Source: Idiomarina zobellii
GTDB taxonomy: Bacteria; Pseudomonadota; Gammaproteobacteria; Enterobacterales; Alteromonadaceae
DNA: 64,000 bases
NCBI RefSeq assembly: GCF_900100855.1
Contig: NZ_FNCB01000002.1
Span: 310,001 to 374,000, forward strand
Reading direction: 5' to 3'
The position numbers and the translations under genes were made by a program. The notes beneath the pieces are model-generated. The model did no database searches and was not told the DNA's origin. It saw nothing but the letters and a program-made list of their open reading frames with translations. Position 1 is the first letter of the stretch, and each line of letters opens with the position of its first letter. This document shows, piece by piece, positions 62,631 to 64,000 of the stretch.

Positions 62631-62879
62631 TCAGTTGCGAGTAAAAGGTATTTTCAATACGCCCCAGCCGCTGTTTTCAGCCCATACCGCTACGCCAGTT
62701 AAACCAATGGGGGCGATAACTCTTAAAAGCACGGTATCAATAACCACAATGCCTAAGTTTGCCGGCCAGCGCTCCTTACGGCTGTAGCGCGATCGGCGCT
62801 TAGGCGACGCATACTCCCACAACACCATGAGAATAAGCACACCCAAAAATACGCTCAGTCGCCAGGCTGTTTCAGACAT
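62631..62879 (-). pseudogene. Sterol desaturase/fatty acid hydroxylase family, N-terminal fragment
   Basis: Only 82 residues: MSETAWRLSVFLGVLILMVL, WEYASPKRRSRYSRKERWPANLG and the second hydrophobic segment VVIDTVLLRVIAPIGLTGVA, then KIPFTRN and a stop. Family members are about 250-280 residues and carry His-box metal sites after this point, all missing here. The break lies within about 10 bp of the tRNA 3' end. Its start overlaps the upstream CDP-alcohol phosphatidyltransferase fragment by 8 bp, so the two were an operon. Family call is from memory of the N-terminal pattern. Confidence 0.65.
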
Positions 62880-63303
62880 TGTCAGCCGCTCCCTTTCTTA
62901 AGGTTCGGTAACCCGCCAGAATGCGGGTTATTGCTGTTATCCAACAGGCCGCGGCAAAAATATACGCCAACACAGCAAAAAGCTGAGGCCACAGACAAAA
63001 TGCGACAAGCGCCAGTATGGTTTCAAAACCTTCCGTTAAACCGCCCATGTAGTGCAGTGACTTATTGGGGTACGAAGGGTTCTCGATTCCCCGCTTTCCC
63101 GCCACGCTGGCAAATGCCAAAAACGTTGACCCCGTGCCCATAAAGGTCACCAGTAGCACTCCGGCTGCTACGGCGTTCTGCTCTGGAGATGCCAGTAAAA
63201 AACCAAACACCACCGCACTATAGAAAACAAAGTCGAGCACAATATCGATGTAACCGCCAGCATCGGTCAGTTGCGTTCTTCTGGCGACTGCCCCGTCGAG
63301 GCC
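62872..63303 (-). pseudogene. CDP-alcohol phosphatidyltransferase, C-terminal fragment
   Basis: The frame reads GLDGAVARRTQLTDAGGYID followed by IVLDFVFYSA, that is most of the family motif D(x)2DG(x)2AR(x)8G(x)3D(x)3D, then several membrane helices to the end. The first catalytic Asp and the N-terminal region are missing: upstream of 63303 the sequence is a foreign insertion-sequence end, and the frame hits a stop (TAG) about 65 bp further. Only a GTG at 63240 could serve as start, which would remove the whole motif. So this is a non-functional remnant. Confidence 0.8.
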
Positions 63304-63399
63304 GCCGGCACAGTTCCAATGATCAGTTATCGCCGGTAGAGTATGAAAAACGTTTTGAAAAAACGGCTACTGAGTGTCTAGTGAACTAGTGGCGATTCA
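63304..63399 (+). mobile_element. 3' end of an IS3-family insertion sequence
   Basis: On the plus strand 63306-63389 reads RHSSNDQLSPVEYEKRF, EKTATECLVN and a stop, the pattern of IS3-type transposase C-termini. Ten bases later the sequence GGCGATTCA ends at 63399, consistent with an inverted-repeat end (TG...CA type). The fic-like reading frame on the other strand breaks exactly at this point. The rest of the element, its left end and target duplication are gone. Confidence 0.65.
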
Positions 63400-63540
63400 G
63401 TACGTTTTATAACGCTCTGCGGTAAAAGCAACTTCAGCTTCTGCTAATAAGTCCGCATCTTTAATGTCTAGCAGGTTAATAAGTATGTCAGTGCCCGGAT
63501 AACAGTATTTATCCTCAGCTACCCCATATTTATCGCGCAT
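63397..63540 (-). pseudogene. Fic-family protein, N-terminal fragment cut by an insertion-sequence end
   Basis: The 47-residue frame reads MRDKYGVAEDKYCYPGTDIL, INLLDIKDADLLAEAEVAFT, then AERYKTY and TGA. This is the N-terminal pattern of Fic/Doc-type AMP-transferases (KYG...YCYPGT...LxIxDAxxLxxAE). Full proteins are about 200 residues and carry the HPFxxGNGR active site, missing here. The stop TGA is formed by the terminal TGA of the inserted element. The ATG overlaps the upstream antitoxin-like gene by 11 bp. Confidence 0.75.
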
Positions 63541-63688
63541 ACTTTCGCTTTAGCTCTTGTATGGATGTACTTTTTGACGATTTTTTGTACGTCAATCCTT
63601 CATAATTAAGGCTTGTTTCAAAATTATCCATTTTAGGTTTAAAGCTGCCTTGATATTGATTTTCCGACGAAGAACCAGCTTGAGACAT
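63530..63688 (-). CDS. Small antitoxin-like protein upstream of the fic fragment
   Basis: A 52-residue protein (MSQAGSSSENQYQGSFKPKM...SLNYEGLTYKKSSKSTSIQE...) preceded by a GAGGG ribosome site and a TATAAT box. It overlaps the fic start. Small genes directly before fic commonly encode Fic-inhibiting antitoxins (VbhA/YhfG-like); I see no motif that proves this, so the role is inferred from position. It appears intact although its partner is broken. Confidence 0.6.
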   Translation of the reverse strand: MSQAGSSSENQYQGSFKPKMDNFETSLNYEGLTYKKSSKSTSIQELKRKYAR

Positions 63689-63725: not shown

Positions 63726-63733
63726 ACAAACAA

Positions 63734-63790
63734 CACTTTTATGCGCATAAAAAAGTAGAAACACGCACTTTTATGCGCATAAAAGTGCGT
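63734..63790. promoter_or_regulatory. Paired palindromic operator upstream of the fic module
   Basis: The 19-bp unit CACTTTTATGCGCATAAAA occurs twice, at 63734-63752 and 63766-63784, exactly 32 bp apart (about three helical turns). The second copy is the core of a perfect 28-bp palindrome (63763-63790, half-site ACGCACTTTTATGC). The first copy is an imperfect palindrome covering the expected -35 region. The right-hand palindrome lies 7 bp after the flgO stop and could also form a hairpin at the end of that transcript. Confidence 0.65.
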
Positions 63791-63796
63791 AATTGG

Positions 63797-64000
63797 TTAA
63801 GGCGCTTTTCTAATAACCGGCTTGCCGTGGTCTTCGCTTAATTGATGAACCACGTGAGCCGGAATAAATACCTGAGCCACACTAGCAACATCTTTGGTGT
63901 TGATGTCGACCAAGCGAGCGTTTGCCATAATACCATCACGATGATGCGACAAAGTCCCCACCATCACGTGCGTTATTGGCATGATCTCGTCAAGTTCCAT
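63797..64000 (-). CDS. flgO: FlgO-family outer-membrane protein (C-terminal part)
   Basis: The last 67 residues of a gene that continues beyond the window. The sequence HVMVGTLSHHRDGIMANARL, VDINTKDVASVAQVFIP matches the C-terminal core of FlgO, the flagellum-associated outer-membrane protein of Vibrio. The first Met seen at 64000 is probably internal. It is on the opposite strand from flgP and flgT and 1.3 kb from flgT. Confidence 0.7.
   Translation of the reverse strand: MELDEIMPITHVMVGTLSHHRDGIMANARLVDINTKDVASVAQVFIPAHVVHQLSEDHGKPVIRKAP

What the first reader, a model, noticed from the sequence alone, without database searches (positions are those of the whole stretch)
63303..63540. Three-way junction: phosphatidyltransferase fragment / IS3-type end / truncated fic
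Within 240 bp three unrelated coding remnants meet. The fic-like frame (minus) stops at a TGA that is the outermost TGA of an IS3-type end; on the plus strand the same segment encodes a transposase C-terminus; at 63303 the segment abuts a CDP-alcohol phosphatidyltransferase frame cut inside its catalytic motif (first Asp lost). The simplest history is IS insertion into fic, then a deletion from inside the IS into the neighbouring operon. Seen: frames, stops and motifs. Known: IS3 transposase and CDP-alcohol phosphatidyltransferase motifs. Inferred: order of events.
Basis: partly seen in the sequence, partly recalled or inferred. Interest (0 to 1): 0.75.

Follow-up and report, generated by a model that had tools for sequence, protein, structure and literature searches.

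The report
Jumping-gene scar with nearby gene deletion
A mobile DNA element jumped into a bacterial toxin gene and a later deletion fused its last 97 bases to a broken lipid-enzyme gene, removing about 9 thousand bases of a transport operon that related bacteria keep; this is an ordinary but unusually clear genome scar.

Summary
Window 63303-63399 is the right end of an IS3-family element (97/97 identical to the element in the nearest relative, G002). To its right lies fic, cut after codon 47 exactly at the IS terminus; the antitoxin gene beside it (ficA/yhfG-like, 63530-63688) is intact. To its left lies a ynjF-type CDP-alcohol phosphatidyltransferase gene cut inside its catalytic motif (first Asp lost). 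In related Idiomarina genomes the two sides are 8.9-10.8 kb apart, with ynjDCB (ABC transporter), a VTT/oxidoreductase, a TonB receptor and a DUF1499 gene in between. That DNA is nowhere else in the window's genome, so a wrong assembly join is unlikely. The junction has a strict 2-bp (imperfect 7-bp) overlap. That fits IS insertion into fic followed by an illegitimate deletion starting inside the IS, rather than a classical adjacent deletion, which leaves the IS whole. A separate 549-bp deletion has gutted the neighbouring fatty-acid-hydroxylase gene. This is a known kind of event, of low interest. A double palindrome upstream of ficA, shared with ATPase and HipA-like loci, is a side lead.

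The parts
62872..63304 (-). Remnant of a ynjF-type CDP-alcohol phosphatidyltransferase gene: codon 66 onward plus one base of codon 65 (numbering of the 208-aa G002 protein); the first usual start codon in frame is GTG at 63240, after all but the last Asp of the motif
63303..63309 (.). Deletion junction: strict overlap 63303-63304 (CG), 6 of 7 bases shared between the G002 phosphatidyltransferase gene and the IS over 63303-63309
63303..63399 (+). Right end (97 bp) of an IS3-family element, with the transposase C-terminus ending at the stop 63387-63389
63397..63540 (-). First 47 codons of fic (63400-63540) and a TGA stop supplied by the IS terminus (63397-63399); catalytic Fic domain absent
63530..63688 (-). 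Intact 52-aa ficA/yhfG-like antitoxin ORF with inhibition-type motif SLNYEG
   Evidence: motif definition from PMC5033356
63733..63787 (.). Two palindromes of the type ACTTTTATGCGCATAAAAGT, 32 bp apart, upstream of the antitoxin ORF
63797..64000 (-). Right flank: flgO-like gene (continues beyond the window), collinear with kin
62631..62879 (-). Neighbouring fatty-acid-hydroxylase gene with a separate 549-bp in-frame internal deletion (breakpoint 62656-62666)

Best explanation
A ficA-fic toxin-antitoxin cassette sat between a DUF1499 gene and a flgO-like gene. An IS3-family element inserted into fic after codon 47. Later a deletion, most likely a single illegitimate one, joined a point 97 bp from the right end of the IS to codon 65 of ynjF. 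It removed the rest of the IS, the 3' part of fic, the DUF1499 gene, the TonB receptor, the VTT/oxidoreductase, ynjB, ynjC, ynjD and the 5' end of ynjF. Result: fic dead, its antitoxin left alone, ynjF dead, the transporter operon gone. Shown: the parts, their exact borders, the kin arrangement, and the absence of the DNA elsewhere in the genome. Inferred: the order, that it was one deletion, and the molecular route.
For: IS end 97/97 identical to G002's element, IS3 family by NF033516. fic homology to L052 breaks at the IS terminus. Flanks collinear with kin on both sides but 8.9 kb (G003), 10.4 kb (G002) and 10.8 kb (G017) apart there, against about 490 bp here. ynjB, VTT/oxidoreductase, TonB receptor and DUF1499 found in 10 of 10 kin stretches; ynjC, ynjD and ynjF in 9 of 10, L044 ending inside ynjB. 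A 10.5-kb stretch of G002 finds only its two edges and the palindromes in the window's genome, listed as 100% complete. In 39 of 39 loci from the genome collection the ynjF match includes the N-terminal half (38 start at residue 1, one at residue 8). Strict 2-bp, 6-of-7 imperfect overlap at the junction.
Against: The left IS end and any target duplication are gone, so insertion cannot be proved by duplicated bases. The strain's own pre-deletion fic is not available; the fragment is compared with relatives only about two thirds identical (65-67%). One search was a DNA search, so strongly diverged paralogues of the lost genes elsewhere are not excluded. No reads were available to test the contig directly. 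One deletion cannot be told from a stepwise series.
Confidence: 0.92

Rival explanations
1. Variant of the same history with another route: a transposase-driven adjacent deletion from a whole IS, then a second deletion that trimmed the IS to 97 bp. (The 0.92 above is for the history; this route is a share of it.)
For: Deletions next to IS150 (IS3 family) are frequent in the Lenski lines and some grow in steps (PMC11708052, passages).
Against: In those cases the IS is at the edge of the deletion. Here the deletion begins inside the IS, so two steps are needed where one suffices.
Confidence: 0.2
2. Homologous recombination between two IS copies, one in fic and one near ynjF, with later decay of the hybrid IS.
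For: The element is multicopy in the nearest relative (right ends at G002:C7 and G002:C8).
Against: It would leave one full IS; only 97 bp remain. The window's genome shows no other copy of this element beyond a 36-bp relic at C28; its C9 holds only a more distant IS3-type transposase, in two pieces at 51% and 57% identity.
Confidence: 0.05
3. Assembly artefact: two stretches wrongly joined at a repeated IS end.
For: IS copies are where draft assemblies break (G002's C7 and C8 both start inside this IS).
Against: The missing operon DNA is nowhere in the assembly, and the rest of this fic was not found (the only other hit in G000 is a 28%-identical Fic-family stretch at C11). The junction falls inside the IS, not at its border.
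Confidence: 0.03

Closest known systems
IS3-family insertion sequence (ISSod17-like)
   Same: Transposase of the matching element passes NF033516 and is 76% identical over 95% of its length to a Shewanella oneidensis plasmid copy annotated 'IS3-like element ISSod17 family transposase'. Ends in CA.
   Different: Only the last 97 bp remain in the window; no left end, no target duplication.
IS-associated adjacent deletions (IS150 in the Lenski lines, PMC11708052)
   Same: IS insertion followed by loss of several kb beside it.
   Different: There the deletion lies next to the IS; here it starts inside the IS and took most of it.
FicT-FicA (Fic-YhfG) class I toxin-antitoxin module of E. coli
   Same: Antitoxin ORF directly upstream of and overlapping the toxin; inhibition-type motif [S/T]xxxE[G/N] in the antitoxin (PMC5033356, passages).
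   Different: The toxin is truncated before its catalytic domain, so only the antitoxin could be made.
E. coli ydjX ... ynjB-ynjC-ynjD ... ynjF cluster
   Same: G002 proteins match YnjF 58%, YnjD 45%, YnjC 32%, YnjB 36%, and the VTT part matches YdjX 35%.
   Different: Idiomarina adds a fatty-acid hydroxylase, an oxidoreductase part and a TonB receptor; the window strain has lost nearly all of it.

Membership tests
IS3-family insertion sequence | IS3-type DDE transposase | tested here: met
   NF033516 268 bits, cutoff 160, on the G002 ORF (5'-cut by its contig end) whose last 97 bp are identical to the window remnant
IS3-family insertion sequence | orfA/orfB joined by programmed frameshift | tested here: inconclusive
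   Not present in the remnant; a 77%-identical relative in G006 has a 94-aa and a 270-aa ORF in tandem; frameshift not tested
IS3-family insertion sequence | Defined terminus ending in CA (recalled) | tested here: met
   ...GATTCA meets different flanks at the window, G002:C8, G002:C7 and the C28-type relic site
IS3-family insertion sequence | Short target-site duplication | not testable with these tools
   Left end deleted in the window
Class I Fic (FicT-FicA) module | Small upstream antitoxin with [S/T]xxxE[G/N] | tested here: met
   SLNYEG in a 52-aa ORF overlapping fic, 50% identical to L052's partner (motif from PMC5033356). Against: Pfam's YhfG model gave no hit for the window protein or L053's and only E 0.074, below cutoff, for L052's; NCBIfam none
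Class I Fic (FicT-FicA) module | Fic domain with HxFx[D/E]GNGR motif | tested here: not met
   The window fragment stops at residue 47; the PF02661 domain is at 57-154 in L052
CDP-alcohol phosphatidyltransferase | D-x2-DG-x2-AR-x8-G-x3-D-x3-D motif (recalled) | tested here: not met
   First Asp replaced by Gly at the junction; no usual start codon in frame before 63240. The intact G002 gene hits PF01066; the window ORF does not
IS adjacent deletion (transposase-driven) | Deletion begins at the edge of a retained IS | tested here: not met
   Deletion begins inside the IS, 97 bp from its right end

The most novel reading that the evidence does not exclude
The double palindrome left upstream of the orphan antitoxin is a common control element (or recombination point) carried by unrelated toxin-like cassettes. 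The same 32-bp-spaced kind of array precedes AAA_14/DUF4143 ATPase genes and HTH-HipA-like pairs in other Alteromonadales-type relatives, and the spot next to flgO holds an ATPase cassette in G002 and G016 and this fic cassette here. Cassettes of different kinds would then share one operator.
Probability: 0.3. Interest if true: 0.5.

Novelty: new member of a known kind. Interest (0 to 1): 0.2.

Why it matters
It is a clean scar: borders are exact to a few bases, the IS remnant is undecayed, and close relatives keep the ancestral order. It shows that one Idiomarina lineage lives without the ynjBCD-type transporter, ynjF and linked genes, for which the family searches gave only general names, so the strain and its nearest relative are a natural loss-of-function pair. 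It also leaves an antitoxin without its toxin. None of this changes how such events are understood.

Tried and rejected
Considered and set aside: 63303-63399 as a normal gene or spacer (matches IS copies instead); recombination between two IS copies (would leave a whole IS); wrong assembly join (the operon DNA is nowhere in the assembly); chance read-through of fic into the IS (fic homology to L052 breaks at the IS terminus).

Led nowhere: Pfam on the short window fragments and NCBIfam on the antitoxin gave no family. A paper search for 'DUF4143' with 'palindrom' found 0 papers in the held library (only that one search was made). PMC11708052 and PMC5033356 were seen as passages only; the other papers only as search listings.

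The palindrome might be a leftover of an ATPase cassette that once stood here, as in G002. Against this, it is no closer to G002's array (87.5%) than to those of other genomes (82-88%), although the surrounding DNA is about 95% identical, and it lies on the flgO side, not the DUF1499 side. It may belong to the fic cassette, but the other ficA-fic loci looked at (L052, L053, L071, L072) gave no hit with it. Unresolved.

Full report
Observation. The window is G000:C13:310001-374000 of a 30-contig genome listed as 100% complete. 63303-63399 is 97/97 identical to the right end of an element at G002:C8:524-620. The ORF of that element scores 268 bits to NCBIfam IS3 family transposase against a cutoff of 160 and resembles plasmid copies annotated as IS3 family, one as ISSod17 family. 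The same terminus...GATTCA, abuts three other flanks: G002:C8, G002:C7, and a relic site at G000:C28 shared with five congeners. So 63399 is the IS border.

fic side. The minus-strand ORF 63397-63540 holds the first 47 codons of a fic gene. Homology to the intact fic of L052 begins at 63400, the base next to the IS terminus; the aligned block with L053 begins at 63394, a few bases into the IS. The stop codon is the outermost TGA of the IS. Intact relatives are 197-198 aa with a PF02661 domain at about residues 57-154, all of which the window has lost. In 19 genus genomes (the window's own included) a near full-length match was found in G011 only (61%). G016 has a shorter one (residues 8-92), and G000:C11, G014 and G015 have weak Fic-domain hits of 28-39%. 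The ORF upstream (63530-63688) is a 52-aa partner, the same length as in L052, L053 and L072, with SLNYEG. That fits the [S/T]xxxE[G/N] inhibition motif of FicA antitoxins; E. coli yhfG is ecficA (PMC5033356, passages). Pfam's YhfG model was below cutoff for L052's partner and gave no hit for the window's or L053's, so the name rests on neighbourhood, length, likeness and motif.

Phosphatidyltransferase side. The G002 gene (208 aa, PF01066) is 58% identical to E. coli YnjF. Window homology runs to 63304; 63305 fits only the IS; 63306-63309 fit both. The first motif Asp (codon 65 in G002, GAC) has become Gly (GGC). The frame is open back to 63366, but the first usual start codon in it is GTG at 63240, after all but the last Asp of the motif, so no active enzyme is expected (inference).

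Kin. The flanks are collinear with G002 at about 95% identity but 10.4 kb apart there; 8.9 kb in G003 and 10.8 kb in G017. tblastn of G002's proteins on ten kin stretches (L035, which is G002 itself, to L044) finds ynjB, the VTT/oxidoreductase, the TonB receptor, DUF1499 and the flgO genes in 10 of 10. ynjC, ynjD and ynjF are found in 9 of 10, L044 ending inside ynjB. The hydroxylase is found in 8 of 10, L043 and L044 ending before it. A 10.5-kb stretch of G002 finds only its two edges and the palindromes in the window's genome. This is a DNA search, so diverged paralogues are not excluded. G002 appears to be Idiomarina piscisalsi TPS4-2: 100% identical ynjF on a contig of the same length, 50,710. 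In that of 39 loci match from the N-terminal part of the query (38 from residue 1, one from residue 8). The search may leave out the window's own genome and used peptide patterns, two of the six from the N-terminal part.

History and mechanism. An intact IS terminus against fic and a cut IS interior against ynjF leave one simple order: insertion into fic, then deletion from inside the IS to ynjF. The strict 2-bp, 6-of-7 imperfect overlap suits illegitimate end-joining or slippage (inference); an overlap this short could also be chance. In the Lenski lines IS150-linked deletions are described as insertion, then a deletion next to the IS, sometimes extended (PMC11708052, passages). Here the IS itself was cut, so the plain form of adjacent deletion is not met, though one followed by trimming is possible. 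The undecayed remnant (97/97), in DNA otherwise about 5% diverged from G002, suggests a recent arrival of the IS (inference).

Second lesion. Beside ynjF, the fatty-acid-hydroxylase gene has lost 549 bp in frame at an imperfect direct repeat (9 of 11 bases, window 62656-62666). It is left with 82 of 265 codons and no Pfam hit. It is a separate event; which came first is unknown.

Side lead. Upstream of ficA lie two palindromes 32 bp apart. In 98 genomes searched at up to 1 mismatch, 10 have the palindrome, one place each. The neighbours are DUF4143-type ATPase genes in 5 (G002, G006, G035, G051, G097). In 3 they are a 101-aa HTH-like ORF beside a HipA-like ORF (G022, G046, G093). There HipA_C was hit in the two tested, G022 and G093; in G046 the HipA-like ORF is broken and was judged by eye. 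HTH_26 was just below cutoff in all three. In 1 there is an HTH gene and a DEAD-box helicase (G068), and 1 is this fic cassette. By BLAST, G016 and G054 also have the array before the ATPase gene. The window's genome has no other copy at up to 2 mismatches. This looks like a cassette-borne operator, unproven.

Verdict. Confirmed and well explained; a new instance of a known kind of event; interest low.

Noticed in passing
window 63733-63787; L035:12212-12299; L081-L085; L024; L026; L038: Double palindrome (ACTTTTATGCGCATAAAAGT type, 32-bp spacing in the window) upstream of the antitoxin ORF here and of AAA_14/DUF4143 ATPases, HipA-like pairs and an HTH gene elsewhere; one place per genome at up to 1 mismatch.
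   Followed up: partly
window 62631-62879: Fatty-acid-hydroxylase gene with a 549-bp in-frame internal deletion at an imperfect direct repeat, next to the main scar.
   Followed up: yes
L005:5120-5155 (G000:C28:44119-44154); L047, L048, L049, L050, L051: A 36-bp relic of the same IS end sits at one site between a MerR-like regulator gene and an efflux-type operon (gene names by eye). The surrounding 4.5-5 kb are 97.7-98.9% identical in five congeners, against 65-85% at the main locus for three of them, G003, G007 and G016, which suggests horizontal spread.
   Followed up: partly
L035:11340-13670, L041:10472-16969, L042:2518-10190, L043:2373-10945: The intervals TonB receptor-DUF1499 and DUF1499-flgO vary in length and content among congeners (for example an ATPase cassette in G002 and G016), so the lost region adjoined an insertion hot spot.
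   Followed up: no
L072:1333-1830 (G016:C1): A second ficA-fic locus in the genus whose fic also looks truncated (about 100 codons open) while the 52-aa partner is intact.
   Followed up: no
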